From Aphelocoma coerulescens (Eukaryota; Chordata; Aves; Passeriformes; Corvidae), in assembly GCF_041296385.1 (NCBI RefSeq), contig NW_027184079.1, forward strand, positions 248,001 through 312,000: a DNA stretch of 64,000 nt, given 5' to 3'. The translations under genes and the position numbers were made by a program. The notes below the pieces were generated by a model. It ran no database searches. It worked only from the letters and a program-made list of their open reading frames with translations, and was not told the DNA's origin. This document shows positions 1 through 64,000 of this stretch, in pieces. Within the stretch, counting starts at the first letter, position 1. Every line of letters starts with the position of its first letter.

Positions 1-1740
1 CAATTGTTGGACATATTCAATACTGGAGGCGGATCAGTCGCTGGATGTGTTGTATTTTGGAGGAGGGGATGCCGTTTCTTTGGAGATGGGCTTGTAGTTG
101 CTCTCTTTGGCAAGGAAGGCAGGTTTGGATGTGCACATCAGGTACTCCTAGGGATTTTAAAGGCTTTTCCCAACAGGCAGAGCTCTCTCTGGGTTCGAGC
201 TGTTGAGCTGTCAGTGGGAATGCAAAGGCCAAGCTCTTAAGCTATTTGTCCTGGTGCCTTCAGTGTGTGAGCAGTCCCTGGTGCCGTTGCCTTTGGATCC
301 TGACTCTGGGAGAGGGAAGGCTTAGGATGGTACCTAGAGCTGAGAAGGAGAGTGCTGAGAACAGCGTGTGTGCTGCTAGTTTGAGGGGTGCAGGTGAAGT
401 TGTAGGCAGCAAGATCTTCCTCAGCTGGCACTGTTTTGAGCCCTGTTTTTGCCAGATGGTTTCAAGTTGGTGGGCGGAATCTGCGAGAGGGAAAAGATTT
501 GTTTGGGCCAAAGAGGTGTGGTGTAAAGAAGAGTGTGCTCTTGGAAGGGGAAGATGAGGGCAACCTTTTTGTCCTGACACCGTTGATTTGAGTGCAGGGC
601 CGTTTGCAAGTTGCCTCTGTCTGCCCTTGGGGTGGTTTCGAGCTGGGCCAGGTGCTTGGCCTTCTTTTGCAAGTCTGCAGCGCCGTCGTGTGGTTGTTTC
701 CATGAGCGCTGACAGTGCCCGGCAAAAAGCGCTTGGCTGGCGCGGCCCCAGTCGTGTGGAAGCAGTTGGTGGAAGAGCTCCGCTGTGCATCCTGCCTCTT
801 GGAGACATAAAAGGATGTAACCCTGCGCGTAGGGGGGAAGCAAGACGAATCTTTTCATTGTTGGCTGAGCAGTTTCTACGCGGCAAAAGTAAAGGCAGTT
901 TCAGCACGGCCTCTTTCTTTCAGAACCTTTTCTGTGCCATCATGAACATGCTCAACATGCCACTCGCACCCGCTGAACTGCATCAAAGGCCCTGGAGATA
1001 GGCACTTTCCTTCAAGCTCTCTGTAGCATCCTACCCTCCACCTCTGGCGGATCCCAAAGCCCTTCCAAACATCCAGCAGCTGCACGCAGAGAACAAGTGC
1101 TAAAACAAGGCGTTGGCCTTCCTAGTCCTTTTAAAGTCTGTGAACTAGGCGAAACATTCCAGTGAGCAGCACTTTCCTTCGCAACTATATCTAGAGCATC
1201 ATCACATTCTCTCCAAGTGGGTAAGTCCACCCTTGCAGCGCAGCGTTTGCAGCCACAGTTCGGACTGAGAGATAGGCCAGGTGAGAAAGCATTTCTTGAC
1301 TATCCCTCTTCTCTGGAAGACTTGATACTCGCAGCGCGACCACGTCCACACACCTTCAGTGTGGCCAGGTTCAAGCAGCTAGAGCTCCCAGAGATGGGAG
1401 AGTCAGGAGAGAAGACGTTCCAAAAGTACCGTGTACTTACAGCAGCATTAAAACTGTGCACAGCAGTCTGCAGCACTGTAGACTGCGGCTTCTCCGACAG
1501 ACGAGCCATCCCATTGTTGCCTCTCGCAGCCTCCTTGCTAGCTGCTCTCCTGAAGAAAAGAACTAGAAGAAAAAGCCAATGCTGGGCTGCACCTTCCCCT
1601 TGCCTTACGTAAAGCCACCTAAACTCCCCGCTGCACTCTCTACTTCCCCTCTCCTTGGAAGCGACCACTGTGTTTGCTGCATCTCGAAGCCTAAAGTTAA
1701 GCGCCAGTGGTTTTGGGGATGGTTGGAAGAGGGATAAGTA
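1..1740. repeat. Outer P1 segment, unrecognised
   Basis: The inner part (about 870-1740) is a strongly diverged version of the tandem unit; the part outside that has no recognised similarity. Long open frames occur on both strands here, and overlapping frames are open at the same place, so none is called as a gene. The segment recurs inverted at 7277-9015 and 47878-49617 and direct at 39212-40949. Confidence 0.6.
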
Positions 1741-3130
1741 GTAGCACAAGGAAGTAGTTGTCGTTGAACTTCCTCCTTCTCAATGCTAACGTGAATTGGG
1801 CAGGCAGGCGAGTGCTAGCCACGCTCCTTTCTCAGTTTGTACGCTGCGGACACGAGTCCGGTGCTCTGCGCCTTCGTTCGGCCTCTTTAGTACCCATGTC
1901 GCTCTTTCATTCAGCCGGAGTCGAAGCGTCGTCTACTTCTCGCCCAGAGAGCACGGTGCCGGCAGCGAAATGCCCCAGCCGACTGCTTCTGCCGACACAC
2001 GCCTGGTCTATGCACTTTCCCTCGCAGCGACATACAGCAGCACTTTCGGTCTTTCTTGTCGTCCAAATGGAAAGGGAAAGATTCTCTGCTATGTCCCGCC
2101 CAGAGAACAGTTTTAGGTCAACCAGCACGCCCAGAGCTTGCCCTCGACGCGTGGAAACTTGTGTTTGCACCACATTCAAGTGGTAGCCGTCTTTCCTTTA
2201 CAGGCTGCAGAACGCCGTCAGATCCCGGTGCTCTCTGCACCTGCCTTCTCAGTTCCAATACCGCCGCGCACAATACAGCTTTGCAGGAAGCAAACACGCG
2301 GATAGTCATGTCGCTCAGAAGAACGTGCCAGGACGAAAAGATGTTCTTCCTTTCTCCTCGTCGCCCATATTGTGGTGCTGTATTAAAAGCCTTGGCCAGC
2401 GAAAGGCTAATCCAGCAAGTGTTTCTCACCTGATGCATTTCGCTGAGGGAGAGCTGAGGAAAATCCTTGCACAGCACACTGCGGATGCGTGCAGTACACA
2501 TGCTGAAGAGAGCCACAGCTAAAAGCAATCGCTGGGCTTCAGTTCTGTCCAGACGGCAGAAGGCGAAGAACGAAGCAGCTGGGCACCGCGTTAACGTACT
2601 CAGTGGACCGAATTTCAAATGTCCAGCCAAGAGCTGCTTCACAAGCAGATTCAGCTGAGAATGCTCTGGATGGTTCACAAAGTAAGGCGTAGCCGTTGCA
2701 CTCTATCACACTACCTGGCCAGAAGAAGTTTCTTACACCTTCAATGCTGCAGAGTCCATGCAGCTGGAGCACACGCAGTAGGACGCGTCCAGATAGACGG
2801 CGTTCTTCAAGTACCCCCCTCCTCCAAGCAGCCTTGAAACTGAGCACAACACACTGCGGCTCGGGAGCTTCCTTCTCAGATAGACGTGCCGTCACGTTAT
2901 TCACTCTCGCAGCTCCGTTGCCCACTAGCAGCAGGTGCTACCAAAGCAAAATGCTCCAGAAGTAAAAAGCACTGCTGAGCAAACCTTTTCCTTTGCCTCA
3001 CGTAAAGCACTGTAAACTGTCCGCTGCACTCTTTATTTCCATTCTCCGCTGCATCTACCACTGTCATCTCTGCATCTCGAAGCATAAAGCTCGGCACAAT
3101 TCTTCCCAGGGAAAGCTGGAAGAGAAATAG
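1741..3130 (+). repeat. P-core tandem unit a (1390 bp)
   Basis: This is the first clear unit of a direct tandem array. Each unit starts with the sequence GTAGCAGCAC or a variant (here GTAGCACAAG) and includes a TCGAAGCGTCGTCTACTTCT block. It is more diverged from unit b than the inner units are from each other. No protein or RNA family was recognised; open frames here are short and not shared cleanly between units. A further diverged unit can be traced from about 870 to 1740. Confidence 0.85.
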
Positions 3131-4339
3131 GTAGCAGCACAAGTAGCTGCAAGTGGAACTTTTGTTTTCAACTGCTAACGTGAATCCGCAAAGAAGCGAG
3201 CGGCAGCCACGCTTCTTCTTGCAGCCTGTGCGATGCGCACACCAGCTCGGTGCTCTGCGCCCTCATTCGTATGCTCTTCGTACCATGTCGCGCTTTTCAT
3301 TCTGCCGGAGTCGAAGCGTCGTCTACTTCTCGCCCGGAGAGCACGGTGCCGGCAGCGAAATGCCCCAGCCGACTGCCCTTCCGAAACACACCAGGGCTAT
3401 GCACTTTTCTCGCAGCGACATACAGCAGCACTTTCGGTCTTTTCTTGTCGTCCAAATGTAAAGGGAAAGATTCTCAGCAATGTCGGGCACAGAGAACAGT
3501 TTTAGGTCAACAAGCACGCCCAGAGCTTGCCCGCGACTCGTGGAAACTTGTGTTTGCACACATTCCAGTGGCAGCCCTCTTTCCTTTACAGCCTGCAGAG
3601 CGCCGTCAGATCGCGGTGCTCTCTGCACCTGCCTTCTCCCTTTCAAGTACCACTGCGCAGAATATAGCCTTGCAGGAAGCAATGACGCGGATAGTCGTCT
3701 CGCAGAGAAGAACGTGCAAAGACGAAAAGATGTTCTTCTTTGCTCCTCCTCGTCGCCCAGATTGTGGTGCTGTACTGAAAGCCATGGCCAGCGAAAGGCT
3801 AATCCAGCAAGTGTTTCTCACCTGATGCATTTCGCTGAGGGAGAGCTGAGGAAAATCCTTGCACAGCACACTGCGGATGCGTGCAGTACACATGCTGAAG
3901 AGCGGCAAAACTCAAAGCCATCGCTGGGCTTCAGTTCTGTCCAGACGGCAGAAGGCGAAGAACGAAGCAGCTGGGCACCGCGTTAACGTACTCAGTGGAC
4001 CGAATTTCAAATGTCCAGCCAAAAGCTGCTTCATAAGCAGATTCAGCTGAGAATGCTCTGGCTGCTTCACAAAGTAAGGCGCAGCCGTTTCCATTCATCA
4101 CACTACCTGGCCAGAAGCAGTATCCTACACCTTCAATGCTGCAGCGTCCATGCAGCTGGAGCACACGCAGTAGGACGCGTCGAGATAGAAGGCGGTCTTC
4201 AAGTACCCCCTTCTCCAAGCAGCCTTGAAACTGAGCACAACACACTGCGGCTCGGGAGCTTCCTTCTCAGATAGACGTGCCGTCACGTTATTCACTCTCG
4301 CAGCACAATTCTTCCCAGGGAAAGCTGGAAGAGAAATAG
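3131..4339 (+). repeat. P-core tandem unit b (1209 bp, internally deleted)
   Basis: Direct repeat of unit a with about 183 bp missing. The sequence jumps from CTCTCGCAG to CACAATTCTTCCCAGG near 4303, where unit a has the full segment 2909-3096. The same deletion appears in the inverted copy at 43888-45096, so it predates duplication of P. Confidence 0.85.
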
Positions 4340-4955
4340 GTAGCAGCACAAGTAGCTGCAAGTGGAACTTTTGTTTTCAACTGCTAACGTGAATCCGCAA
4401 AGAAGCGAGCGGCAGCCACGCTTCTTCTTGCAGCCTGTGCGATGCGCACACCAGCTCGGTGCTCTGCGCCCTCATTCGTATGCTCTTCGTACCATGTCGC
4501 GCTTTTCATTCTGCCGGAGTCGAAGCGTCGTCTACTTCTCGCCTGAGAGCACGGTGCCGGCAGAGAAACGCTCCGGGCTTCTGCCTCTGCCGAAACACGC
4601 CTGGGCTATCCCTCTCAGCGTTAAGTAGCACAAAATGCTGTCTGCGTTGTGGTCTTAATCTTAAGGGAAAGATTCTCGGCTTCGGCTAGCACAGAGAACT
4701 TTGCTGGGACAATACATGTGTTTTATTATCCTTTCTCGCAAGAAGACTATGGTGCTTCTTTGGAACTGTTGGCCAGTGTAAGGCTAATCCAGCAAGTGCT
4801 TCTCTCCTGACACATTTCTCTGAGCGAGAGCTTCGGCGGACAGTTGGGCTCTGCGAAGCAGAAAGTCTGTGCTTGCACGTAGCGCTGAGGAGAATCTGTG
4901 CACAGCGCGCTCTGGATGCGTGCAGTACACACACTAAAGAGAGCCAAAGCTCAAT
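4340..4955 (+). repeat. P-core partial unit c, next to the axis
   Basis: The start of a third unit, which diverges after about 200 bp and then runs into the palindrome axis. It holds a diverged copy of the segment seen at 2400-2520 (GGCTAATCCAGCAAGTG, then GGATGCGTGCAGTACACA). Confidence 0.75.
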
Positions 4956-5023
4956 GTCTCAGTTCTGTCCAGCGCCGGAAATTGAGAAGAACGCAGCCCC
5001 AGAGCTCTGGGCTGGAGTGTGCG
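4956..5023. other. Axis (turn-around) of palindrome I
   Basis: A short spacer between the inverted arms. It contains a perfect 14-bp inverted repeat at 4998-5011 (CCCAGAGCTCTGGG). The flanking arms pair at 4913-4923 and 5061-5071. A long hairpin or cruciform is geometrically possible here. The matching inverted axis in P2 lies near 43220-43235. Confidence 0.75.
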
Positions 5024-7277: not shown

Positions 7278-9015
7278 CTTATCCTTCTTCCAACCATCCT
7301 TGGAAACTTTGGCGCTTAACTTTAGGCTTCGAGATGCAGCAAACACAGTGGTCGCTTCCAAGGAGAGGGGAAGTAGAGAGTGCAGCGGGGAGTTTAGGTG
7401 GCTTTACGTAAGGCAAGGGGAAGGTGCAGCCCAGCATTGGCTTTTTCTTCTAGTTCTTTTCTTCAGGAGAGCAGCTAGCAAGCAGGCTGCGAGAGGCAAC
7501 AATGGGATGGCTCGTCTGTCGGAGAAGCCGCAGTCTACAGTGCTGCAGACTGCTGTGCACAGTTTTAATGCTGCTGTAAGTACACGGTACTTTTGGAACG
7601 TCTTCTCTCCTGACTCTCCCATCTCTGGGAGCTCTAGCTGCTTGAACCTGGCCACACTGAAGGTGTGTGGACGTGGTCGCGCTGCGAGTATCAAGTCTTC
7701 CAGAGAAGAGGGATAGTCAAGAAATGCTTTCTCACCTGGCCTATCTCTCAGTCCGAACTGTGGCTGCAAACGCTGCGCTGCAAGGGTGGACTTACCCACT
7801 TGGAGAGAATGTGATGATGCTCTAGATATAGTTGCGAAGGAAAGTGCTGCTCACTGGAATGTTTCGCCTAGTTCACAGACTTTAAAAGGACTAGGAAGGC
7901 CAACGCCTTGTTCTAGCACTTGTTCTCTGCGTGCAGCTGCTGGATGTTTGGAAGGGCTTTGGGATCCGCCAGAGGTGGAGGGTACGATGCTACAGAGAGC
8001 TTGAAGGAAAGCGCCTATCTCCAGGGCCTTTGATGCAGTTCAGCGGGTGCGAGTGGCATGTTGAGCATGTTCATGATGGCACAGAAAAGGTTCTGAAAGA
8101 AAGAGGCCGTGCTGAAACTGCCTTTACTTTTGCAGCTTAGAAACTGCTCAGCCAACAATGAAAAGATTCGTCTTGCTTCCCCCCTACGCGCAGGGTTACA
8201 TCCTTTTATGTCTCCAAGAGGCAGGATGCACAGCGGAGCTCTTCCACCAACTGCTTCCACACGACTGGGGCCGCGCCAGCCAAGCGCTTTTTGCCGGGCA
8301 CTGTCAGCGCTCATGGAAACAACCACACGACGGCGCTGCAGACTTGCAAAAGAAGGCCAAGCACCTGGCCCAGCTCGAAACCACCCCAAGGGCAGACAGA
8401 GGCAACTTGCAAACGGCCCTGCACTCAAATCAACGGTGTCAGGACAAAAAGGTTGCCCTCATCTTCCCCTTCCAAGAGCACACTCTTCTTTACACCACAC
8501 CTCTTTGGCCCATACAAATCTTTTCCCTCTCGCAGATTCCGCCCACCAACTTGAAACCATCTGGCAAAAACAGGGCTCAAAACAGTGCCAGCTGAGGAAG
8601 ATCTTGCTGCCTACAACTTCACCTGCACCCCTCAAACTAGCAGCACACACGCTGTTCTCAGCACTCTCCTTCTCAGCTCTAGGTACCATCCTAAGCCTTC
8701 CCTCTCCCAGAGTCAGGATCCAAAGGCAACGGCACCAGGGACTGCTCACACACTGAAGGCACCAGGACAAATAGCTTAAGAGCTTGGCCTTTGCATTCCC
8801 ACTGACAGCTCAACAGCTCGAACCCAGAGAGAGCTCTGCCTGTTGGGAAAAGCCTTTAAAATCCCTAGGAGTACCTGATGTGCACATCCAAACCTGCCTT
8901 CCTTGCCAAAGAGAGCAACTACAAGCCCATCTCCAAAGAAACGGCATCCCCTCCTCCAAAATACAACACATCCAGCGACTGATCCGCCTCCAGTATTGAA
9001 TATGTCCAACAATTG

Positions 9016-10480
9016 CCCCCACACGCACAGGGGCCAGAAGAGAAATGTCTTGCTGGACTATTCCTCCCCACAGTACCTTAACATCTGCTCCAGCAACACT
9101 GGCACTATGTCCTTGCCTTCCCAAGGAAAGGCACTCCGAGTCTCTTGGCCTTGCCTTGTCTAGTTCTTCTTAAGGTACCCTTGCTCTGCTTCCTTTGCCT
9201 ACGTCTGCCTTGCCTCGCACTGCCTACAACTTGCTGGCTTTGCTTTGCCCGGCCTACCACTCTTTCCCTTGCCTTCCATGCAGGCAAGGCGCTGCAAACC
9301 GAGTGCAGGCAATTGTGGGCAAGTCAAGGGAGAGGTAGGCAAGGCCAGAGCAGTGAGGGGAAAGCAAATGGAGTGGTAGACAAGAGAAGGTCCAGAAGTT
9401 AGAGGCAAGGCTGGCTGTAGGAAGGAAGGGCCACTGATGGGAAGGCCAGGCAGAAACAGGAAGGGCTCAGCAAGCCAAGGCCCTGGAGGAAAACAGTAGG
9501 CAGGTCATGTGCTGGGCATGGCCGTGCAAAGGAATGCAAGGCTCCAGAGGGCTAGCAGGGCAAGGCAAGGCAACTGTTGTGTTGCCAAGGCAAGGCCAGG
9601 CAAGGCAGGTGAGAAGTACATTCAAGGACTGCTGGTACACAAAAGTGGCCAGGACCAAGTGCTCTGTGTGGCCTTGATCCCGCGTGGGTCATCTCTCCTC
9701 TGTACCTAAAAGACTTGAGCTACCTGCTTTCCCTTGTATGCAAAAGAACTCTCTTTCTGGTCCCCGAGCTCAAGGGCAAAATGTGAATTGCCCCTCCAAG
9801 GTTCAAGACATGCAAGGATTGCTCCCAGACAAAGGCTGCCCACAGAGATGAGTGTGGCAACATGCGTCCTCCCCTGGTCTTCCTCTCATGGGATCCTGAA
9901 ACACCGGAGATGCTTGAGAGCTTTGAGATTCCTCGGAGGAGCAGAAAGGGCAGGGCAAGGCCCAGAAATGTCATTGAAAAGGGGTGTTGAATTCCAGGTG
10001 GGGGAGGGGTGAGCAAGGTCATGCAAGGCAAGGGAGGGGTTCAAGGGCAAGGCAAGGCAAGTGGTGGCTTTGCGAGGCGAGGCAAGGCAATGAGGGTCCT
10101 AGAAGGAAAAGGAAAGGTGAGGCCAGACCTAGACGAATGTGAAAGGAAGTCAGGTGGGGGATGGGTGAGCAAGTCAGTGCAAGGCAGGGGAGAAAAGGCA
10201 GGTTGAGGGAAGGCTACAGAGGGGGCAGCAAGGAAATGCAAGGCATGGGGAAGCATTCGAGGAGTGGGTGCTGCCAGCCGGTGGGGATGGCAGGGGCGGG
10301 GCCACTGCAAGTAGCATGGTGGGGATGTGGAGGGGGTGTTAGTGTGCGGGAGGTGTGTGTGTGTGTGTGTGCAGTGGAGTGCAGGGTAAGTGCAGGTGTG
10401 TGTGTGCGTATACGGGGGTTTTGTGCCAGGTGCTGTGCCGGGGAGAGCCGTTCCACCGCAAGGAAGGTGTGGGCGTGAAA
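9016..10480 (+). repeat. AAGGC-rich low-complexity stretch with TG run (B1)
   Basis: This stretch is dominated by irregular GGCAAGGCAAGG-type motifs. The C-rich version is on the plus strand at the start (about 9150-9280) and the G-rich version afterwards. A 19-nt (TG)n run lies at 10353-10371. No gene is recognised. Confidence 0.8.
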
Positions 10481-10484
10481 GGAG

Positions 10485-10933
10485 TAAGATAGATGTGTCT
10501 TTACAAAGAGACCGTGTGAATCTCTCCTTAGACAAGGCTAGGAATTTACAGGGGGGGAAGTAACAGAAGAAAGTATTCGTTCTAGAAACTGTTACTAATC
10601 AACAGAGACTGTTGCTCAGCCAAGGCCCTGCTAAATTCCTGAACCTAGAGCAAGGCAGCAAAGACTTCCCAGCATTAGGAATAGTTTGGTTTTCTTCCTT
10701 TTCCATTCCAAAAGGGGACTGCATATTAGAGGGGGGCGTAGAGTAGGCAGTTCCGGAAGTCTGTAATTCCCGAGTACCTCAGAGGGTGCTGTTGCCAGGA
10801 ACTTAACATCAGAAGGGGGCTGCTTCCCGCAATCATTTGAGAGACTCCATGGCAAAAGCCCCATGGCCTCTCCCTGGAGTTGAAGAATGTTACAGGACTC
10901 CTCTGTCTCCTTTTTGGTGGATGAAGAAACTCA
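10485..10933 (+). repeat. 5' LTR of the B1 old provirus
   Basis: Aligns with 14129-14594 along its length, sharing GTCTTTACAAAGAGACCGTG near the start and GACTCCTCTGTCTCCTTTT near the end. It begins TAAGAT here but TGAGAT in B2, so the terminal TG has been lost in this copy. The end is placed at a shared CTCA and is uncertain by a few bases. Confidence 0.7.
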
Positions 10934-11234
10934 GAAAGCCACACTTCTGCCAGAACTCTCCAAGATGCCCCCTTTGCTCCCCGTGACTCCATCACTGCCC
11001 AGGAAGCTGTCTTTTCTACCACAGCAGTTTGACATACAGTTAAAAGTCGTGTGGCAGAGAAAAAAGGCAAGAATTGGTTTCCAAGGGATGGCAAACAAGA
11101 GATACCAGAACCTTTGGCCCTACCAATATTAAAGCAACTCCATTAAGAGAGTTCTTGCACTTCCTGAGGATTGGCAGAAGCCTATCTCATGATGTATGTT
11201 GCTGGGGGTCTTTTTAGACTGGCAAAAGGAGCTG

Positions 11235-51539: not shown

Positions 51540-51840
51540 GAAAGCCACACTTCTGCCAGAACTCTCCAAGATGCCCCCTTTGCTCCCCGTGACTCCATCA
51601 CTGCCCAGGAAGCTGTCTTTTCTACCGCAGCAGTTTGACATACAGTTAAAAGTCGTGTGGCAGAGAAAAAAGGCAAGAATTGGTTTCCAAGGGATGGCAA
51701 ACAAGAGATACCAGAACCTTTGGCCCTACCAATATTAAAGCAACTCCATTAAGAGAGTTCTTGCACTTCCTGAGGATTGGCAGAAGCCTATCTCATGATG
51801 TATGTTGCTGGGGGTCTTTTTAGACTGGCAAAAGGAGCTG

Positions 51841-53027: not shown

Positions 53028-54580
53028 AGTTTAGGCCAGGAGTGGGAGAATCAATTTGCAGCCTTAGGAGAAGAAGTAGCAAAAGTTTTTAACCTTAGCA
53101 ATTGCTGGCTCTGTGGAGGGCCAGGAGGATCTGAAGAGTGGCCATAGTTGGCTAGCCCAGCTGAACCTAAATGGTGGGTCAATGTGAGGGCCACAGTGGG
53201 ATGGGATTTGGGGCCAAAGAAGGAAGTTCATGGCCACTTCATTCTTCTCCAACAGGCACTTATTGCCTAAATAGGATAGGGCGTGTCTATGTAGGAAAAG
53301 GCAATTGTCAATTGACTTTCCCTCTGGGCTTGAACAACTGGGTTTGGACCCCCAATTGCCCTCCTTCCAATTGTTCCAAATATCAAGGCAAATGCAATCA
53401 AATACCTGTTCGGCTCACTAACAGTAGCTGCGTAAGGCGTTCTTATCACACTTACCAAAAATATTTGGAAGCCTGTAAAGCAATGGGGAGGGACAAGGGG
53501 GTTTTTTGACCACCTGTTTTTGAGCAGTCCCCACAAAAATTCCACAAGTAGAAGACATGTTGTTTGTGATTATCAGTGGGAATGGCCACACCGGATTGGA
53601 ACTCAAAGCCTTTTAGTGAGTTCTGCTCCAAATCCAACCAAGCAGCTTGCAGATGTAAATGTAGGTGGGAACCCTGTGCGGGAGCTTGGAAATGCAAATG
53701 CTGGGACCCTTATGGTGGGGCAACTCTTGTTGGAGGACCGTTAGGCCCGGGAATCCTGCTGTATTTTGAGCCACCAATTGATGACCATGGGTAGGTTCCT
53801 TTGCTAATGGAACACGGGCTTTGAAAGGACAGTATTGGATTTGTGGCCAACATGCTTAGCTCAGGTTACCTCCAAACTGGTCAGGGATATGGTATATTTA
53901 GTAGACTGTTGTTCTTTTTGCTACTACAAGTTCTGGGAAATCGCTTAGGAATCAAAATCTGTGATGATTTAATTAGAGAAAAGCAGTCAGCTGATGCAGC
54001 CCTGGCTGGAGGGAGCACCCCAAAACGGGGAAATGATGAACGGCCAACAGAACAAGTTACCCAACACGATGGACCAGCCCCTTGGAAACCTAAGGAATTA
54101 ATCCCAGATGCCTGGGAACCCATTTATCATTTGAAGGAGATAATTAGGTTACAAGCTGTCTCGGAAATAATTACCAACCAGCCAGCCACAGCGCTTGACC
54201 TTTTTGCTGAGCAACCCACTTAAATGAGGAAAGCGGTATTTCAACATTGGATGGTATTAGATTATCTGTTGGCAGAAGAAGGAGGAGTTTGTGGGAAATT
54301 AAATGACTCGAGCTGCTGTTTGCAAGCAGATGACAGCGGAAAAGTGGTCAAACAAATAACAAAGGAAATAACGTCAGCTCGTGGACCTGTCCAAATGTTG
54401 AAAGGATGGGAATGGGACATGTTTTCATGGTTAACTGGCCAGCTCTGGGCTAAATGAATACGATTCCTCCTCTTACATGCTATAGCAACTCTCATCTTTT
54501 TACCATGTGTGACACCATGCTGGCTGCAGCTCTTTCAGCAGGTGCTCAAGGGGATGCCGCTAGCAGCCATGCCTACCTGA
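53028..54580 (+). pseudogene. Envelope remnant (B3)
   Basis: Direct copy of 12425-13977. The TM segment (54224-54457) is open through the codon that is TAG in B1. The stop that separates it from the preceding 126-codon stretch (53843-54223) is present in all three copies. Confidence 0.76.
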
Positions 54581-54732
54581 TCCAGAAATGACTACAAAAG
54601 GACAGAAAAGGATGTCACTGCAAATAATAGCAAAACCCAAGAAGACTCCAGAAGAAAAAAATTAAATCCATGGTAATTAAGGTTTGTAAAGACAAATACA
54701 GAGCAAATAAAAAGAGGAGGGATTAAAAGGAA

Positions 54733-55198
54733 TGAGATGGATGAGTCTTTACAAAGAGACCGTGTGAATCGGCCTGTAGACAAGGCTAGGAAGTTATGGC
54801 TAGTGAAGTAACAGAAGAAACTAGGAGTTCTCTAGAACTGTTACTAATCATCAGAGACTGTTGATTAATCAAGGCCGTGTTAAATTCCTGAACCTAGAGC
54901 AAAGCAACAAAGACTTAAGAGCATTAGGAATGGGGTTCTTTTCTTTCTTCTCGATGCCAAGAGGGGGGTGCATATTAGAGGGGGGCGCATAGAGTAGGCA
55001 GTTCCGGAAGTCTGTATCTCCCGAATACCTCAGCCAGTGGGGAAAAGGAAGAGGGTGCTGTGGCCGGGAACTTGGCATCAAAAGGGGGCTGCATCCCGCA
55101 ACCGTTTGACAGACGCCATGGGAAAAGCCCCATGGACTCTCCCTGTAGTCGAAGAATGTTGCAGGACTCCTCTGTCTCCTTTTCGGATATAAACCTCA
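54733..55198 (+). repeat. 3' LTR of the B3 old provirus
   Basis: Direct copy of 14129-14594, starting TGAGATGG and abutting the B3 CpG island. Confidence 0.7.
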
Positions 55199-55203
55199 GG
55201 CAT

Positions 55204-56170
55204 CGTGGATTAATTTTCCCTAACGGCAGCGACCTGCCGCGTGGTCTCCGTGCTCCTCTCCAGCCCCCCGGAACGTGTAAAATAGTTCCCAGCGGCTCCC
55301 ACCGCGCGTTGCAGACGGCTGCGCGGCCCCGGGGCTGCCCGCAGTGCTCCCCTGCCCCGCCAGGGCTGCCCGCGGGCTGCGGAGCCGCCTCGCCACCGGC
55401 GCGGCCAGGGCTGGGGCCCTTCTCGACAGCAGCCGAGGGGCTGCGGAGCGGGCGGCTGCCGGACGATCAGCTATTTTATGCCGCGCGGTGCTGCCGCCTC
55501 CATCTAGCTCTCCATCGCGCCGCCGCCCGCCGCCCGCCTGGCGCGCTCACGCTCGGCCGCGCTCGCCGCCCGCCCAGCCTCGCCGGAAGCTCTCCCGCCC
55601 GGGCTGTGCCCCGGCTCCGCCGGCAGCTCGGCAGGGCCCGGCCGCACGCGTGCTGCGTGGCTCGGAGCAGCCGCGTTGCGCCGCAGGCGACGGGGAAGGC
55701 GGGGCGGGCCGGCGCCATCGTGGTAGCGCGAGGAGAGGAGCGCCCGGGCGGGGCGGCGAGCGGCGCGGCGGTGAGCGCTTCTGCTTCCTGTCGCTCGGCG
55801 GCCGCCCACGGCAGGTGCCGTGTGACCCCGCGGAGCGGCGGGGCCGGCCGGGCGGTGCGCGGCGAGGCTTTCGGCCAGCGGCGGCCACAGCGAGAGGCTG
55901 CTGGCACTGCCCGTGCCGGTGGAGAGAGCGGGGATCCGAGGCCGGCCTTCCCCGGGCGACGAGGGGAGGCCGCCTTTGCCGCGCTGCCCTCCGTGCAGCA
56001 TGTGGCCGATTCCGGCGAACCCGGGGTCTCCGCAGCGGCGCGGGCGGGAGGGAGTGGGGAGCGCGCTCGGTGCCGTGCCGGCCGCTCCCGGCCAGCGCTG
56101 CGCTGCGCCGAGGCGTTTTCCCGCCCGTCCTGGGAAGGACATAAGCGACACCGTAGTTGGAGCTTAGCTG
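55204..56170. promoter_or_regulatory. CpG island / candidate promoter (B3)
   Basis: Near-identical inverted copy of the B2 island. The minus-strand ATG is at 55716-55718, with a donor-like GTGAGC near 55545-55550; the plus-strand donor-like site (GCGGCGGTGAGC) lies near 55765-55777. The island is followed directly by the intact B-C junction (56188) and the C end. Confidence 0.65.
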
Positions 56171-56187
56171 TCAGGGGGTACAACTTC

Positions 56188-56916
56188 CCTCCATTGGCGA
56201 CCTCCTTTTCCCTCTGATTCAGCTACCTTGTGGTAGGTGCGATGGTGCTGAAGAAGGGTGGCGGCTTAGCACAGTTGCTGTCATAGGTGGTGCGAGAGCT
56301 CCACGCAAGGAGCTTTGAGTGGCATGTGTGAGGGTAGGAGGGTACGGCACCCATAGCTGAAGGCAAAAAAGGTCAGGGCATGTCATCAGCCGCAGTCGTG
56401 CTAAGTTGTTCATCTTTGCAAACTGCTTGCCGAGTTGTTCCTTTCTTAGGTAATGGGGGCTTGTATCAACCAGAACTGCAAATGGTCAGTATTTGCAGAG
56501 AAGGTTACTTGGACTGTTGTTGAAGTGAGTGTAGCAGTTTCTATGGCATTCTGCAAAAAAAGTGACAGGTCTCCCTGTGTTCCCCAGTTCTTAACAAAGA
56601 TGAAGTTAACAAACCCCTGAAAAGAGGTTTTGCAAAACTTCAGGGATATTTTCCTACTAGTACTGTAGAGACAACCATAGTCACCTTGTCTTTCCAAAAG
56701 TGAAGGTTCCCTATTTTTGTCCAAGAGCATCAAGTGCTTTTGATCAGCGTTTGTGTGCATGCATTAGCCTCGTTCTTGCTCTTCCTTGGAGAACTTTTAC
56801 AATACTCACATGATCTGTGTAGGCTGCAGACTGCAGTGGTGAACTTCAAGGCTTCCAGCAGAAGGGAGATGCTATCCACATTTTGGATTCTCCTTAGCCT
56901 GAACCTTCAACGTCCA
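56188..56916. repeat. Inverted end of block C', left
   Basis: Mirror of 31913-32641 across palindrome III. The junction with B3 is intact and without a provirus. Confidence 0.92.
56446..56760 (-). CDS. Unrecognised 104-codon ORF (C' end, copy 3)
   Basis: Same translation as the other three copies, reading toward the B3 island. Coding status is unproven. Confidence 0.3.
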   Translation of the reverse strand: MHTNADQKHLMLLDKNREPSLLERQGDYGCLYSTSRKISLKFCKTSFQGFVNFIFVKNWGTQGDLSLFLQNAIETATLTSTTVQVTFSANTDHLQFWLIQAPIT

Positions 56917-58407
56917 AGGCTTCACTTTTCAAGCAGTTGGAAGAGCTCCAAATTAAGACATGAACAGGTCTTAATTGACCTTGCCACCGCCTCAGTTAGT
57001 CAAGTAATGCTGTGCATTGGATTTGACTAGTGCAACATATGCTTAAAATATGTAGAGTAACTCCTCGATTACCCTCTCAGAAGGGTTGGAATGGAGAACA
57101 AGGAGTTCCCAAGACAAATATTTGGTGTACGAGGAGTAGAATTTAGGAGTTGATTGCAGAGCACTGCATGCACAAATGTCTAAGGAGAATCCATCTTTTG
57201 ATGTCCCATCTATGCTTGTTCTCATTTGAAATCCTGCACATTCTGCAGGCTGGTTTTGTTAGGCTTGGGGCTGGGGAAGGAGTGATGGTGGGGGAGGAGT
57301 GGGTGTTGGTTTTGGGTTATTTTTTTGTTTCCAGAATAGTGTACACAGAACTTGTGCCCAAAACCAGCAGTAGGAAACAATGCAGGTATAAAAGAAGGTC
57401 ACAGAAATGTCAGATAATACGAATCTGAAAGCGCTTCAGTATTTTACTCAGGAGTTTCACTCTAACAAGGTGATTTTCCTTCACAGAAATGTAGTGGCAG
57501 GCTTATGCCATGCTAGAAGTGATGACCTTTCTCTGCCCCAAATTGAGCAGCAAAAGGTTTTGGCTCTTAATTTGAACCCCTGAGCCAGCTGTGTTTCAGG
57601 CTGCAGAAGCTGCAGCTGTTGTGGCAGACGCGGGGTGCAGCCCTGCCTGCCAGTTCCGAGCTGGCCTGCGCTGGTGGCAGCCGTCAGCGCCCGGGGTCCC
57701 CTGTGCCACCCATGCCAGGGCTCTGCCTGCCTGCCTCGCAGCCCTGGTAGCCTCAGGGAAACATCGCACTACTCCATCTGCTTTAAAAACAAACAAGCAA
57801 ACAAAAAGCTCCCTGTAAATATATGTAGAAGTCTTGAAACTAATTCTCAGCGCTTGCTCGGAGTTTGTTGATGGAGCAAATGGATTTTGGATAAACTGCT
57901 ATTGCTAGTACTACTTAGGTTCCTAAACTTCAGAAGGGAGGCTATGGTGGTCACGTACCCCTGAGGAATGTTGGGAACAGTAAGACAGCTCAGTCATTTC
58001 AAGGTGGCCAGAAAATGGGTGTGGCAGTGGAGTGGACACTCTGTGAGTAGGTAGCCTTAAGTCATGTAACGACATGCACTTCAGTGGGAATTTTGCATCA
58101 ACACCAAGAGATTGTGTCATGATGTGTTGCGTAACAACAAATTGGGCCAAAATTCTGCTGATTTTGACCAAGGTGGATGGGCCACCTTCACTTAAGCTGG
58201 CAAAGGGACATAAGTCAATGATGTTTGAAAAACAGCCATGAAACATAGCCCCTTTAGTTTGTTGGTCTGTTGCAAGTCTGCAAAGCTCTGTTGACAGGTC
58301 ATTGGAAGTAGCTGTTGGAATCTAAGTGCAGTTGGACGCTTTGTCAGTCAGCATCAGCAGGAGGCTTAACGGTTTAGGTTGAGAGGTGGTGCATGGTTTT
58401 TTTTCAG
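56917..58407. other. C' core, unassigned sequence
   Basis: Mirror of 30422-31912. No recognised gene. There is a GC-richer patch at 57600-57760 and an open but unrecognised frame at 57923-58246 on the minus strand. Confidence 0.55.
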
Positions 58408-58530
58408 AGGAATGGCCCAGTGAAGAGCAGTGTTCACTGCCATGACTACCGTTGTAGCCTTCAAGAGCAATGGTTCATTCAGAGAGAACTTCCTTGGTTC
58501 TGCTGGTTTGGTTTCGCAGCTGGAGCAAAG
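58408..58530 (+). other. Exon-like open segment, C' copy
   Basis: Mirror of 30299-30421. The acceptor-like TTTTTTTTCAG ends at 58407 and the donor-like GTACAG starts at 58531; 41 codons are open between them. Confidence 0.25.
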
Positions 58531-58771
58531 GTACAGCACTGGAAGCAATTCCTAGGGCAGAAGCGGGAGATATCCGAAGCTCTGGACTTCGTTGCCTAAG
58601 TGAGCGTAGTCTAATTGGAAGAGTGGTGAGCATCAGTGATATCAGATTTTTTACAAGTTCTTAATTCTGTCAAAACAAGAAAGAAGGAGAGTGATGAAGA
58701 TGAAATCCTTTCCTCTTCAATCTGCCTATGCAACAACTTCAGCTGTAGTTGTAATGTGTATTCACCTATTT

Positions 58772-59239
58772 TGAATTGCCCAAAACCAGGCCTAGAGATG
58801 CTTCAGAGTCAGAGAAGCGGGTATTTGCTTTATTCGGCGCTGGGTGCATGGGGGATCACTCCTCCTAACACACACACACAGAGCACTCCATACAGTCCAG
58901 CATTATGTGTAAAATTTATGAACATTCATCACAATTCTTGGGATAGGAGTGGTTCTAGAAATTACTTCTCGGAAGTCATTAATATCATTAGCATACGTGC
59001 CATGCATGCGCTGTGTACGCTGATGGGCGCACTGAGGAAGGCTCCTCTTCTTCCTCGAGGGTCTTTCTGATGAAGATCAGTAGTCTTTGTCACAATGCAC
59101 TTTTTACCTTTCTTTCTGGAGCATGCACAGTTCTTCGGTGGCTGATGCAGCGATCTCTGTGCCGGTTTTCAAAAGATCCTGTTCCTCTTATCTTGACAAG
59201 ATTAAGGCGAATCCTGCTGCTTAGGTTTTGTGATTAACA
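58772..59239 (-). repeat. Probable solo LTR, C' copy
   Basis: Mirror of 29590-30057, with at least one substitution near 59139. Confidence 0.45.
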
Positions 59240-59871
59240 TTTGCTGTCTCTTAGTAGTTCACTCGTGTTTACATGAGTTAACTATGGATCAACCCCCTTC
59301 TCAATTTTAGCACTGAAAGGATATTAGAGTCATTTAAAGAGATGTCTCCTATGGAGTACTATAAAACTGCCATAATGGTAAGACGTTTTCATACAGTAGT
59401 TTTAGCACAGAAGTAATATATGTACAATCTTGGATGTTTCATCCTGCTGGCTCAGGAGCCAGTATTGAGCTTTTCTCCTTTAAATCCAGTCTTAGAGCTC
59501 TGCAAGGATCACTGCAGCATGACGTTGTGACAAGGGGATGCTGATTCATGCATAAACCTTTGACGCTTTCCTTCTATCTTCAAGCAGCTTTGAAAACCAG
59601 TGATTATCTGGCATGTTGCGACTTGAGAGTCATGGTAAAGGTTTCACCAAACACTTTGTAATATCAGGCTACAGCTTTCATTCCTAAGGAAAGAGCATTG
59701 AGCAGATTGCTGGCAAAATGCTGAAAGAATGAGCCAAAACCAAAATCCTTTAATGGGAAAGATGGAAAAAATTTAGATGTGTTTATTTGAACTAAAAATA
59801 ATGTGGACCAAGCCTAAATGTATTTCACACTAAATTCTTAGAACTGATTTTAAGGGAAGAAGTGAGAAAGA

Positions 59872-60509
59872 TGAATTCCCAAGCGGAATTTTCAGCAGCA
59901 TAATATTGAGCATTTATTAGTAGAACAAAGGCATATCACAGTGCAGGAGCACTTAGCAATATTGCTAGAGGCGTGGCTCCATTCATTTTACTGTGAACTT
60001 TAGTACTTCTTTAAACATAGTCCTTAAGCCCAGAAAGTCATTTACACTTCACTCAACTTTCCCCCCTCCGTCTCTGCCCCCTTGCGCCAGCACACGCCAG
60101 CACACTGCCACCTCGGTCCTCTGAGTAGCTCCAGAATTGAAGGCAGGCACCCCCCTCCGGTGCCTCCTCAGTCTCCAACCTAATTTGTAGTTGATGGGTT
60201 CTTTGGGAGGTGTGAGTTTTGATGAGATAACAGACTTCCTGGGATGCATGCGGTTTATCTTCTTTGTTTCTTGAAGATGTCTTGGTTTCCACCTCTGTAA
60301 TTTCTCAACTGAAAGGACATTTATTATCATGTGTTTCTTCCTACGTTTCCCAACATGTTACCACTCATTCGAAGTTACAATTTACTCTAGTCTTGTTTTT
60401 ACTTACCTATATTTTACCTTAACACTATTTCTACATAGTACATTCTCACTTCTAAATGTTAAAGTGATAGATGCGAAAGACAAAATTTATCGTTCACTCA
60501 TTTATCACA
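59872..60509 (-). repeat. Possible solo LTR, C' copy
   Basis: Mirror of 28320-28957. Confidence 0.35.
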
Positions 60510-60531
60510 GGAGGAATGTGTTAGCTGCTTG

Positions 60532-60934
60532 TGTTGCAGTTCACTTGTAATTGTGGTCTATTACCGCAGGCCTGGGCCCTAGGGTGTATCACTGTGTCCC
60601 GCAGCCATAGGGAGGAGGAGGAGAGAAGATCCAGCAGGCAGGAATTGTGCACCAAGATTTATTCATTTAATTATTTCACAAACTCTTTTACAGACTTTTT
60701 TCTTCATAGTCTAATTGGACAAAGGATCAGCCCCCCCCCTTGGGGTGATTGGCTAAAATCCTAAACCATCCATTGTCAAAATATTTTTCTACTAGACCAT
60801 AAACCAGACTTTTCAAGGTTGCAGGTGGCTTGGTTGTTTACATACTCTGCTACCTCTTCTGTGAGAGAGAAAAGTCTCTCACAGACTTAGAAAATAGCAA
60901 GAAAATCCTCGCTAGCAGCATTTTGGTATCTACA
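60532..60934 (-). repeat. 3' LTR of the ERVK-like remnant, C' copy
   Basis: Mirror of 27895-28297. The polypurine tract lies just outside at about 60938-60948. Confidence 0.7.
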
Positions 60935-61063
60935 ATTCCCCCTTTTTGTTTGATAAGATAACAACTCCACTATTAATCCTAAATAGAAATTTACATCAGT
61001 TATTAATTCTAAATATGTCCTTAAGGCTTTAACGATCTGACTCCATAACAAGAAATTTAAAGT

Positions 61064-62105
61064 TCAGTCTCTGCTTGTGGAAGGACCATCCCAGTCTCTG
61101 CTTGTAGAAGGACCATCTGCCTGATGGTCAACATCTTGGTCATCATCAGAAGAGTCTGATGGCTGATGATCTACATTCTGGTGGCCACTTGGATGGTTGG
61201 TGTTCTGGTCATCATTTGGAGGTTGCCTGTTCTGCCTCTGGTGCCGTAGGGCAGGGCGAACACATTTTGCAGCTAGCCACCGTACCCCAGTATCTGTAGA
61301 AACGCAAGCATAGCCACGACCCCAAACCATAAGTTCCCGCAGGCCTTCCCACTGGTTAGTGAGTAAATTCCACACCCAGACTTTTGCCCAGGGCAGTTGT
61401 CTCTTGCCTGCAGATTGCAATGAGAGAAAGTGATTCAGAAGAACAGGATTCTTTGAATTTTGTGGTACCGTAAGGTGATTAATTGTATACGAGCTTTTGC
61501 TAGTCGGCTTCAGTAACCAAATTCAAAGGTTCCTGTGAGAATCGTTGAAAAGCCATGATAACAGCCCTTAATTCAACTAACTAAGCAGAGTCTGACTCGG
61601 ATTGGTGTGTTAATCAACCACTGCAAAGGCAGTGTAGGATACTGTGCACCTTTGCGCACAGTGACCCCTGCTAAAAATTTGTCCCGATCCGTATGCCCCA
61701 GGCTGCCAACACATCCCGTCCCCAAAGGTTAAGGGAAGTGGTAGTAACATAAGGCCTAATTGTAGCTGTGTGCCCCTCTGAGTCCTTCACCGTCACAGGC
61801 CGTTCGCTTCAATAGCTCTGTGTGGTTCATCCTCATCCTGTGATGGCCGATCCCACTGGGGGTAAAGGCCATGAGGGAGGCCACGCAGAGAAGGAGATGA
61901 TAGTTACATCAGCACCAGTATCAATCAAACCTTGAAGCTGAGTCCAGGGCGGACGGGCGTTCGGCAGGATCAGGGTACACGTCATCTGTGGCCTTTGGTC
62001 AGAGATGTCTGCAGTCCAGAAGGCCTGCAGAAGTCCTGTAGATCCACTGCTGTTATCTTTGTGAGTTTGTTGTTCTATCCTGGGGACACAAGACTTAAAA
62101 GGCAC
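61064..62105 (-). pseudogene. pol: pol remnant of the ERVK-like element, C' copy
   Basis: Mirror of 26724-27765. The protease piece is 61833-62105 and the integrase C-terminal piece 61064-61420. It carries the same internal deletion of RT and the same breaks as the C copy. Confidence 0.76.
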
Positions 62106-62468
62106 TAATTTAGCAAGGCAGGTCTTTTCAGGAATAGTTACAGGGGGTTTTCAAATTCCCTATAAAACTGAGGACAAGGCTCCGAGGAGCGGATTCCCAT
62201 CAATCCGACCTCATCCTCATCCTATCGCATTAAACCTGTTAGAAGCCAGACCTGAACAGCCCCTCTCTTCCTTTGTCTCTGAGCTAACGTGAGCCGACAT
62301 CAACGGCTCCTGCCGTGTTTCCCTCTGCAAAGAAGCCAGCTAGCTAGCCCAGCAAGCTCTTTTCCTGATCCCGAAGTCGCTTCAGCGACGCGTGGAGGTA
62401 ACGCAGCTGGACTGTCTCTGACCAGGGGCACGCCAGAGTCAGTGCCTCGAGCACCAAACGCTGCGTTA

Positions 62469-63178
62469 TTGGACATTGAAGGTTCAGGCTAAGGAGAATC
62501 CAAAACGTGGACAGCATCTCCCTTCTGCTGGAAGCCTTGAAGTTCACCACTGCAGTCTGCAGCCTACACAGATCATGTGAGTATTGTAAAAGTTCTCCAA
62601 GGAAGAGCAAGAACGAGGCTAATGCATGCACACAAACGCTGATCAAAAGCACTTGATGCTCTTGGACAAAAATAGGGAACCTTCACTTTTGGAAAGACAA
62701 GGTGACTATGGTTGTCTCTACAGTACTAGTAGGAAAATATCCCTGAAGTTTTGCAAAACCTCTTTTCAGGGGTTTGTTAACTTCATCTTTGTTAAGAACT
62801 GGGGAACACAGGGAGACCTGTCACTTTTTTTGCAGAATGCCATAGAAACTGCTACACTCACTTCAACAACAGTCCAAGTAACCTTCTCTGCAAATACTGA
62901 CCATTTGCAGTTCTGGTTGATACAAGCCCCCATTACCTAAGAAAGGAACAACTCGGCAAGCAGTTTGCATAGATGAACAACTTAGCACGACTGCGGCTGA
63001 TGACATGCCCTGACCTTTTTTGCCTTCAGCTATGGGTGCCGTACCCTCCTACCCTCACACATGCCACTCAAAGATCCACCTGTGACAGCAACTGTGCCAA
63101 GCCGCCACCCTTCTTCAGCACCATCGCACCTACCACAAGGTAGCTGAATCAGAGGGAAAAGGAGGTCGCCAATGGAGG
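62469..63178. repeat. Inverted end of block C', right
   Basis: Mirror of 25651-26360, sharing its 19-bp deletion and likewise abutting a provirus S LTR. This matches the left arm exactly and differs from the other C end. Confidence 0.92.
62626..62940 (+). CDS. Unrecognised 104-codon ORF (C' end, copy 4)
   Basis: Same translation as the other three copies. Here it reads toward the second provirus S copy. Coding status is unproven. Confidence 0.3.
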   Translation: MHTNADQKHLMLLDKNREPSLLERQGDYGCLYSTSRKISLKFCKTSFQGFVNFIFVKNWGTQGDLSLFLQNAIETATLTSTTVQVTFSANTDHLQFWLIQAPIT

Positions 63179-63835
63179 TGTTATAAACATATATTATATT
63201 GGCTTCTCGCAAAGTATAAAGTAGATATTATATAATGTTAGAAATGCTTTTTGCTGTGTGGATGTAGTTTTCTTTTTAGCAAGAATGTTAGCAAGTGTGA
63301 GCACGTAAGATAACCTCCAAACGAACAGAGGATGAGGCCCGAAAAGCTGCTAATCAACACTTTGTCTAGGGAGCAAAAGGGCCCAAAGGCTACTCCGCCC
63401 GGAGAACAGGCGGCCAGGAGAGTCCAAGAGCCGTTATCACCACTCTGCCCGGAGAGACGAAGAGGCCCAAAGCTGCAATCAGCCCTGTCTGTCTGGAGAA
63501 TTAAGAAATCCACCCTACCATCGACTCTTGCCTAGCGGGCCCAACCCCAAGAATCAAGAGAAATAAAACCACAAGGCAGAAGACTACGCATGCTCTAAAA
63601 AGGCGGAACCAAGGAGTGGCCATGCAGAACAGCTCCAGGAAAAGTTTTAATATGAATAAAGAACAGACAGTAAAAATGGTATAAAAAAGACTCACCTCTG
63701 GCATCAGGTGTGCTCTTGGCAGAGCACCAAGGCACCCGGCCATTACCCCGTTGCTTTATTTGATGTGTCTCTTATTGTCTTTATATTAAACCCTTTAAAT
63801 TCTCACGAGTTCACGAGTGAACCTCGTTTTTCACA
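63179..63835 (+). repeat. 5' LTR of the second provirus S copy
   Basis: 657 bp, TGTTATAAAC to TTTTTCACA. It is nearly identical to 24998-25650 except for a CACGAGT duplication near 63805-63820 and a few substitutions (for example near 63443). TATA box at 63680-63687. Confidence 0.92.
63680..63687 (+). promoter_or_regulatory. TATA box of the second provirus S LTR
   Basis: TATAAAAA in the U3/R position, identical to the first copy. Confidence 0.65.
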
Positions 63836-63837
63836 AT

Positions 63838-63855
63838 TAAGGGCTCGTCCCGGAG
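63838..63855 (+). promoter_or_regulatory. Primer binding site, second provirus S copy
   Basis: Same tRNA-Pro-like sequence with the TGG-to-TAA change as at 24978-24995. The change therefore predates the duplication. Confidence 0.72.
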
Positions 63856-64000
63856 CTACACCTCGCCTCTGAAAAGCGTGGGAGGATTCAAGAAGCAAGG
63901 GTAAGGCGCCTCCCGCCCAAGTTGGCAGGACCTTTGCTTAGCATCCTCTGGCGTGATTTGGTGGCAGCAGGGCAACACCCGGAGGACAAGAAAGACACAA

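What the first reader, a model, noticed from the sequence alone, without database searches (positions are those of the whole stretch)
1..64000. Three interlaced palindromes make up almost the whole window
Palindrome I (axis near 4992), palindrome II (spacer 26361-31912) and palindrome III (axis near 44414) share the same arms, so blocks alternate in orientation as P-B-C-B-P-P-B-C. This is an inverted-repeat array, more complex than a single palindrome. Such arrays are known from sex chromosomes, where arm-to-arm gene conversion keeps copies alike, and W-linked palindromes have been reported in songbirds. A nested organisation with a 1.4-kb satellite-like core at one axis and a retroviral core at the other looks unusual.
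Basis: partly seen in the sequence, partly recalled or inferred. Interest (0 to 1): 0.9.

Follow-up and report, generated by a model that had tools for sequence, protein, structure and literature searches.

The report
Giant flipping repeat at chromosome ends
The mirror-image DNA in this window is a small piece of a repeat about 39,000 letters long that a songbird-like genome carries hundreds of times, at least some of it right beside telomeres, and whose parts appear to flip over by recombining with themselves.

Summary
The interlaced palindromes are real, but the window shows only about one and a half units of a far larger array. An exact 40-base marker from the 5.5-kb spacer occurs 474 times in the 1.33-Gb genome; 43 of 83 same-orientation spacings are 39.2-39.4 kb. 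This is a macrosatellite of about 19 Mb whose unit is itself a palindrome: satellite, arm, provirus, spacer, arm. On contig C13 (27.5 Mb) the array ends about 7.5 kb before a terminal TTAGGG tract, and the block between them is found on 13 contigs, C13 included. CHD1 matches mark C34 as W and C39 as Z, not C13, so a W palindrome is not supported, although the window's own contig is unplaced. Orientation switches in 8 of 91 neighbour pairs, and single junctions flip alone. Arms at four orientation changes are recombinant as inversion between inverted arms predicts, but one ordinary arm is mosaic too. A 14-kb crow satellite may be a relative; that was not testable here.

The parts
1..1349 (-). 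J-side end of arm P', provirus-free type, of the preceding unit
   Evidence: arm hit C659:241425-249349, typed nonE_A
1350..4303 (+). A-side block of 1.39-kb satellite monomers (full copies 1565-2912 and 2913-4303)
   Evidence: monomer BLAST
4304..5020 (+). junction J, centre of axis I; 40-mer marker at 4775 occurs 451 times in the genome
5021..7666 (+). B-side block of diverged, inverted 1.39-kb satellite monomers
7667..15554 (+). arm P, provirus-side type; holds an old LTR element (LTR-like 10478-10917 and 14122-14582, 81% alike; rve piece 11374-11820) and a CpG-island-like stretch about 14500-15500 (GC 0.69-0.79, CpG o/e 0.97-1.08)
   Evidence: 4-bp flanks TCTC and CCTC against empty site CCTC
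25655..26360 (+). inner arm segment b, provirus side
26361..31911 (+). spacer C (axis II); marker 40-mer at 30111 occurs 474 times in the genome; contains RVP and IN_DBD_C scraps
31912..32637 (-). inner arm segment b', provirus-free side
32642..40560 (-). arm P' with empty provirus site; recombinant: provirus-side alleles at 3 sites (9373-9391 in arm coordinates), provirus-free alleles at the 20 sites from 10719 on
40561..43206 (-). B-side satellite block, inverted
43207..43923 (-). junction J inverted, centre of axis III: the orientation switch
43924..48268 (-). A-side satellite block, inverted, one monomer longer than at axis I
48269..56187 (+). arm of the inverted unit, provirus-free type
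56192..56917 (+). b of the inverted unit, provirus-free side
56918..62468 (-). spacer C inverted
62469..63174 (-). b of the inverted unit, provirus side
63179..64000 (+). edge of the second provirus copy (coding strand now +), continuing beyond the window

Best explanation
The window is part of a giant macrosatellite. Its unit, about 39.2 kb from axis to axis, is a palindrome: satellite junction J, arm P, a provirus in one arm, inner segment b, spacer C, b inverted, P inverted. Shown: hundreds of near-identical copies, mostly head to tail in the part mapped, on at least 18 contigs; on C13 the array lies next to a telomere of a contig that carries neither the W nor the Z CHD1 match. Inferred: the arrays sit at the ends of several autosomes and spread and homogenise by unequal exchange within arrays and ectopic exchange between chromosome ends. 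Because neighbouring P arms are inverted, homologous recombination between them turns over either the core (provirus plus C) or the junction J, or longer runs; the mirror images in this window are one such orientation switch. I see no gene that the unit clearly encodes; most likely it is heterochromatic subtelomeric DNA with no coding role.
For: Tandem array: 474 exact spacer markers (253 forward, 221 reverse; reversed-pattern control 0); 43 of 83 same-orientation spacings 39.2-39.4 kb, most others longer by steps of about 1.4 kb, the satellite monomer length. Telomere: 678 TTAGGG in the last 5,330 bases of C13 and array homology to about 27.478 of 27.489 Mb; 49 TTAGGG in the last 300 bases of C45. 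Several ends: the 3-kb cap lies at about 100% at 12 places (the query's own included) and in part at C655; the proximal flank is 99.8-99.9% alike on C13, C44 and C45, more than two haplotypes of one locus supply. Not the Z or W contig: CHD1-like_C on C34 twice, C39 once and C12 once, none on C13. Inversion: 8 switches in 91 pairs (on C13, C44, C50) and 5 lone J flips (C44, C45, C48, C50); at four orientation changes 5 of 5 arms predicted to be recombinant show mixed alleles, and 2 of 2 predicted normal arms are at least 21 of 23 one type. Homogenisation between units.
Against: The window's contig C659 shows no telomere repeat in its first or last 300 bases and is not placed on a chromosome. 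C13 is called non-sex only by lack of CHD1 and, if the assembly is the published one, by size. The one independent arm I could type from an ordinary run (L017, the telomere-most unit of C13) is itself mosaic, 14 provirus-side to 9 provirus-free alleles, so mixed arms are not unique to inversions. Two predicted arms (L064, L067) carry provirus-side alleles at block 1, where the simplest single crossover predicts the other type; block 1 is not diagnostic genome-wide (provirus-side alleles in 22 of 97 provirus-free arms). Two recombinant arms rest on one core-end site (15546). Unit order comes from an assembly; if it is that of PMC11631490, mean read length was 14.55 kb, shorter than a unit. The array is shown on only 7 of the 13 cap contigs.
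Confidence: 0.8

Rival explanations
1. A W-linked palindrome array of the Y/W ampliconic kind, kept alike by arm-to-arm gene conversion.
For: Inverted arms at 97.5-98.1%; mosaic arms show arm-to-arm exchange; arms 0.6-1.0% apart while the LTRs are 3.4% apart; three spacer markers lie on C37, whose identity was not tested; the window's contig is unplaced and C13 is not tied to a named autosome.
Confidence: 0.08
2. The orientation switches are assembly errors in a purely head-to-tail array.
For: Units are about 99.9% alike and longer than typical HiFi reads; stretches without diagnostic sites occur in the arms.
Against: At the four orientation changes examined, the predicted arms are recombinant, at different places, which would need recombinant reads; 8 switches lie on C13, C44 and C50 and 5 lone J flips on C44, C45, C48 and C50. 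Reads were not available, so this is not excluded for any single switch.
Confidence: 0.15
3. The mirror units arose by fold-back or breakage-fusion-bridge duplication at broken chromosome ends, not by recombination between pre-existing arms.
For: Location next to telomeres; 3 of 8 switches lack an exact J marker, as expected if symmetrical new junctions formed there; a microhomology join exists at C659:196067.
Against: Lone flips of J between two equally oriented cores (5 of the 73 J markers found between such cores) are simple for inversion between arms and hard for fold-back.
Confidence: 0.12
4. The unit is an amplified gene family with a function, the CpG-island-like stretch in each arm being its promoter.
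For: A stretch with GC 0.69-0.79 and CpG o/e about 1 in the arm, and a like one at 32501-33000 in the other arm.
Against: No Pfam match outside retroviral domains in the 28 distinct reading frames tested; no tRNA and no Rfam family. Spliced genes with short exons would escape this test, and not every frame was tested.
Confidence: 0.07

Closest known systems
Chicken Z-macrosatellite (Hori et al. 1996, not seen; cited in passages of PMC7397634)
   Same: Bird macrosatellite; clusters at chromosome termini, in the passages seen on GGA1, GGA2 and GGA3 as well as Zq; large unit (about 24 kb by recall).
   Different: Named for Z in chicken; here it ends a contig that is not the Z or W contig, and lies on unplaced contigs. 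A palindromic unit with flips is not mentioned in the passages seen. No sequence comparison was possible.
crowSat1, 14-kb satellite of hooded crow (Weissensteiner et al. 2017, not held; passages of PMC6115840)
   Same: Corvid large tandem repeat, described there as 14 kb and a suspected major heterochromatin component; by recall it has a 1.2-kb subunit, comparable to the 1.39-kb satellite plus arm (about 14.2 kb) here.
   Different: Unit 14 against 39 kb; provirus, spacer and palindrome not described in the passages seen. Homology not tested.
D4Z4 subtelomeric macrosatellite (human 4q; abstract openings in listings)
   Same: Macrosatellite next to a telomere; repeat number varies.
   Different: 3.3-kb unit with a coding frame (DUX4), 8 to over 100 units; palindromic structure not known to me.
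W palindrome of white-throated sparrow with part of a CHD1W intron (Davis et al. 2010, not seen; via a passage of PMC3403216)
   Same: Inverted arms with signs of conversion in a songbird.
   Different: W-linked; its counterpart here is more likely the inverted CHD1 pair on C34.

Membership tests
Macrosatellite | kilobase-scale unit in long tandem arrays | tested here: met
   474 markers; 43 of 83 same-orientation spacings 39.2-39.4 kb
Macrosatellite | units homogenised within the family | tested here: met
   spacers 2-8 differences in 5,551 among four copies of C659; same-position LTRs 0-4
Subtelomeric repeat | lies next to telomere repeats and is shared by several ends | tested here: met
The chromosomes behind these contigs were not named
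Sex-chromosome (Y/W) palindrome | sex linkage | tested here: inconclusive
   leans against: C13 has no CHD1 match, and the W (C34) and Z (C39) contigs are not among the 100 of 474 markers listed; the window's contig is unplaced, C37 untested
Sex-chromosome (Y/W) palindrome | arms of one palindrome more alike than to other copies | tested here: not met
   40-60 differences between arm types, 9-30 between same-type arms of different units
Sex-chromosome (Y/W) palindrome | arms carry genes | tested here: inconclusive
   only retroviral domains in the 28 distinct frames tested
Class I endogenous retrovirus | paired LTRs, 4-bp target duplication, gag-pro-pol-env domain order with MLV-type integrase end | tested here: met
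   LTRs 96%, TCTC/CCTC with one difference; Pfam pieces in order on the minus strand, MLVIN_C at 28.1 against cut-off 29.2 bits. The definition is recalled
crowSat1 | sequence homology to the 14-kb crow satellite | not testable with these tools
   source paper not held; no crow genome collection is offered
Chicken Z-macrosatellite | sequence homology to the chicken unit | not testable with these tools
   no chicken genome collection is offered

The most novel reading that the evidence does not exclude
A flip-flop subtelomere: many chromosome ends of one songbird carry the same palindromic 39-kb unit, so each array is a row of independently invertible segments (core and junction), and ectopic exchange through these arms keeps non-homologous chromosome ends alike and scrambles orientation continuously.
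Probability: 0.45. Interest if true: 0.75.

Novelty: new variant of a known kind. Interest (0 to 1): 0.58.

Why it matters
Subtelomeres are among the least assembled parts of bird genomes. If right, about 19 Mb (1.4%) of this genome is one repeat whose palindromic unit records, in its own arm variants, which exchanges happened: between units, between arms and perhaps between chromosomes. That makes inversion, conversion and ectopic exchange at chromosome ends measurable from long reads. It also warns that palindromes in unplaced bird contigs should not be read as sex-linked by form alone.

Tried and rejected
W palindrome: set aside as main reading after CHD1 mapping. HINT1 in the window: no credible match (best E 0.40). 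Coding gene in the unit: 30 entries, 28 distinct reading frames (two were entered twice), against Pfam gave retroviral domains only; no tRNA, no Rfam family at gathering score. Block-1 arm alleles as a genome-wide marker of inversion: dropped, because 22 of 97 provirus-free arms carry the provirus-side allele and only 69 of 97 provirus-side arms carry it. A count of occupied provirus sites, a search for the proximal flank and a test of C13 with MC1R were planned but did not complete. L016 was too short to type. In mending this report I lowered the main reading from 0.82 to 0.80 and raised the W rival from 0.06 to 0.08, because C13 is called non-sex only indirectly.

Data dropped before counts: one search used 97 of the 100 listed spacer places (3 on C37 left out) of 474 in all, and 83 of the 100 listed J places (4 on C51 and 13 on C52 and C53 left out) of 451 in all.
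Full report
What was claimed and what is there. Self-comparison confirms three interlaced inverted repeats: 24833-43206 against 45694-64000 (98.1%), 1350-15558 against 32638-46883 (97.5%) and 1-3924 against 5021-9015 (92.7%). The same call shows that 1-3924 also matches 39212-43206 in direct orientation, which palindromes alone do not predict. The spacer recurs inverted at 56918-62468 with 7 differences in 5,551 bases.

Anatomy. Reading from axis to axis, the unit is: junction J (4304-5020) inside inverted blocks of a 1.39-kb satellite, arm P (7667-15554), a provirus (15559-25650), inner segment b, spacer C, b inverted, P inverted. The provirus has LTRs 96% alike and 4-bp flanks TCTC and CCTC; the opposite arm shows the uninterrupted site. 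Separate frame pieces on the minus strand match Gag_p30, RVP, RVT_1, RNase H, rve, MLVIN_C (28.1 bits, cut-off 29.2) and TLV_coat, so I read it as a class I, gammaretrovirus-like element. Older retroviral scraps lie in the arm (rve, 11374-11820) and in the spacer (RVP and IN_DBD_C). No other protein family was found in the 28 distinct frames tested, no tRNA and no Rfam family. The arm has a CpG-island-like stretch.

The scale. The genome search places the window at C659:248001-312000 of a genome of 1,330,612,911 bases in 660 contigs. A 2-kb query from the window gave 40 scored places, all printed as 100% identical, many about 39.2 kb apart (40 of 2,278 candidates were scored). An exact 40-base spacer marker occurs 253 times forward and 221 times reverse, with 0 control matches; an exact J marker 241 and 210 times. 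Both are lower bounds on the number of units. At 39-40 kb each, 474 units make about 19 Mb, 1.4% of the assembly (my arithmetic). The places listed lie on 18 contigs. Of 83 spacings between neighbouring same-orientation spacers, 43 lie at 39.2-39.4 kb, 17 at 40.6-40.8, 12 at 41.9-42.2 and 4 at 43.2-43.6 kb, which fits gain or loss of 1.39-kb satellite copies; 2 lie at 38.0 and 5 above 46 kb. That count used 97 of the 100 listed places.

Where it lies. C13 is 27,489,330 bases long. Array homology begins near 26.763 Mb, with a diverged edge unit (spacer 93%), and ends near 27.478 Mb in diverged satellite; the first run of three TTAGGG comes about 7.5 kb later and the last 5,330 bases hold 678 TTAGGG. 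C45 also ends in TTAGGG (49 in 300 bases); of the other 16 array contigs whose last 300 bases I read, none shows TTAGGG there, and C52 shows 3 CCCTAA. The block between array and telomere lies at about 100% over 3 kb at 12 places, its own included, and at 99% over 1.2 kb at the end of C655: C13, C45, C48, C51, C52, C69, C139, C142, C496, C642, C645, C649 and C655 (40 of 1,373 candidates scored). All but C142, whose length I did not look up, lie within about 10 kb of a contig end. The array itself is shown on 7 of these 13 (C13, C45, C48, C51, C52, C496, C655). More distant relatives of the cap, 92-93%, lie on other contigs such as C2, C4, C7 and C8. The stretch at the inner edge of the array is 99.8-99.9% alike over 9.7-9.9 kb on C13, C44 and C45; three copies exceed two haplotypes of one locus, so at least two loci share it unless the assembly duplicates. 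Orientation relative to the cap is mostly constant: listed spacers are + on C45 (17 of 17) and C13 (13 of 17), where the cap is on the right, and - on C48 (20 of 20) and C51 (10 of 10 listed), where it is on the left.

Which chromosome. The CHD1-like_C family matches C39 once, C34 twice and C12 once. By recall CHD1 is the classical Z/W gene pair of birds and CHD2 is autosomal, so I take C39 as Z, C34 as W and C12 as an autosome. C13 has no match; it was not tied to a named autosome. The 100 listed markers, which seem to be in contig order, include none on C34 or C39; three lie on C37, which I did not identify; 374 places were not listed. The window's own contig is unplaced and shows no telomere repeat in its first and last 300 bases. 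So a non-sex position is supported for C13 and likely, not shown, for C659.

Which bird. The published Florida scrub-jay assembly has 1,330,898,477 bases and 659 scaffolds, a largest W scaffold of about 21 Mb and a 4.7-Mb W piece (PMC11631490; outline and abstract, passages, section 16 part 1 of 2 and section 18 seen). G000 has 1,330,612,911 bases, 660 contigs, C34 of 20,979,278 bases and C36 of 4,676,095 bases. The match is close but not exact; I take it as probable. If so, C13 at 27.5 Mb is larger than any W scaffold. The parts read do not describe this repeat. That assembly used HiFi reads of 14.55 kb mean length, a real limit on trust in unit order.

How it evolves. On C659 same-type arms of different units differ at 9-30 of about 7,900 sites, the two arm types at 40-60 (nine arms); the one recombinant arm lies 25-31 from one type and 33-50 from the other. 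Inner segments differ 6-8 in 706 between sides and 0-2 within a side; same-position LTRs differ by 0-4, the two LTRs of one provirus by 21-24 in 653 (four proviruses). So homogenisation between units is faster than between arms. But because the other arm has the clean empty site, the arms are most simply older than the provirus, and yet they differ by 0.6% (48 of about 7,888) where the LTRs differ by 3.4% (22 of 653; Fisher p 5e-9). Arm-to-arm exchange in the past explains this; the alternative, that the arms came from two alleles of which only one had the provirus, is not excluded.

How the palindromes of the window arose. Of 91 neighbouring spacer pairs on six contigs, 8 switch orientation (C13, C44, C50). 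Of 73 J markers found between equally oriented spacers, 68 agree with them and 5 are flipped alone. Since P arms alternate in orientation all along the array, recombination between any two opposite arms turns over what lies between. This predicts that an arm next to a switch is a hybrid of the two arm types. In the window, the arm 32642-40560 carries provirus-side alleles at 3 sites (9373-9391) next to B-type satellite and provirus-free alleles at the other 20 sites (first seen). At a second switch (C44) the predicted arm is provirus-side at 22 of 23 sites and changes only at 15546; at a third (C13) the predicted arm is provirus-free at 18 of 23, with provirus-side alleles at 15546, at 11775 and at the three block-1 sites, the last against the simplest prediction; at a lone J flip (C44) both arms are mosaics, 8 to 15 and 17 to 6, that change broadly around 10.8-12.6 kb, again with provirus-side block 1 on both; the two arms predicted normal are 23 of 23 and 21 of 23 one type. 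Against this, the telomere-most arm of C13, in an ordinary run, is also mosaic (14 to 9), and the block-1 alleles are not diagnostic elsewhere. I could not fetch further control arms. The inversion model is therefore favoured, not proven, and exchange between arms clearly happens as well.

Other rearrangement. At C659:196067 arm position 15542 is joined to spacer position 163 with about 2 bases of overlap, an end-joining scar in a neighbouring unit.

Comparison with the known. Bird macrosatellites at chromosome ends are known: passages of PMC7397634 place the chicken Z-macrosatellite at termini of GGA1, GGA2 and GGA3 and on Zq. A 14-kb crow satellite is described in passages of PMC6115840 as a suspected major heterochromatin component; the source paper is not held. 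A passage of PMC3403216 names a W palindrome in white-throated sparrow with part of a CHD1W intron; the inverted CHD1 pair on C34 is the more likely counterpart of that. I saw no report of a 39-kb palindromic unit in the listings; passages of PMC7341801 (which tabulates one 'Macrosatellite' variant without unit size) and PMC7757076 did not mention one. Most subscription papers were outside the search.

Verdict.

Noticed in passing
G000:C34:20333922-20334107 (-) and 20476538-20476723 (+): Two CHD1-like_C matches in opposite orientation about 142 kb apart on the W contig, possibly the CHD1W palindrome known from New World sparrows.
   Followed up: no
L001:8051-8067 (C659:196067): Arm P position 15542 joined directly to spacer position 163 with about 2 bases of microhomology; the b segment and nearly all of an arm are missing there.
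   Followed up: partly
window 14500-15500: CpG-island-like stretch (GC 0.69-0.79, CpG o/e about 1) in the arm next to the provirus site; the satellite blocks also keep CpG o/e of about 0.65-1.0.
   Followed up: partly
C13, C44 and C50: orientation switches without an exact J marker: 3 of 8 switches lack the exact J marker between the opposed spacers; at the ones on C13 and C44 both flanking arms carry the provirus-side block-1 allele, at the one on C50 neither does, so the junctions there may be different, more symmetrical ones.
   Followed up: no
C2, C4, C7, C8, C10, C26, C32 and others: 92-93% relatives of the telomere-side cap sequence, several per contig on C2, C4, C7 and C8: perhaps an older repeat family.
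   Followed up: no
C37:873106, 2830595, 2870500: Three spacer markers on a 3.4-Mb contig of untested identity that stands between the W and Z contigs in the numbering.
   Followed up: no
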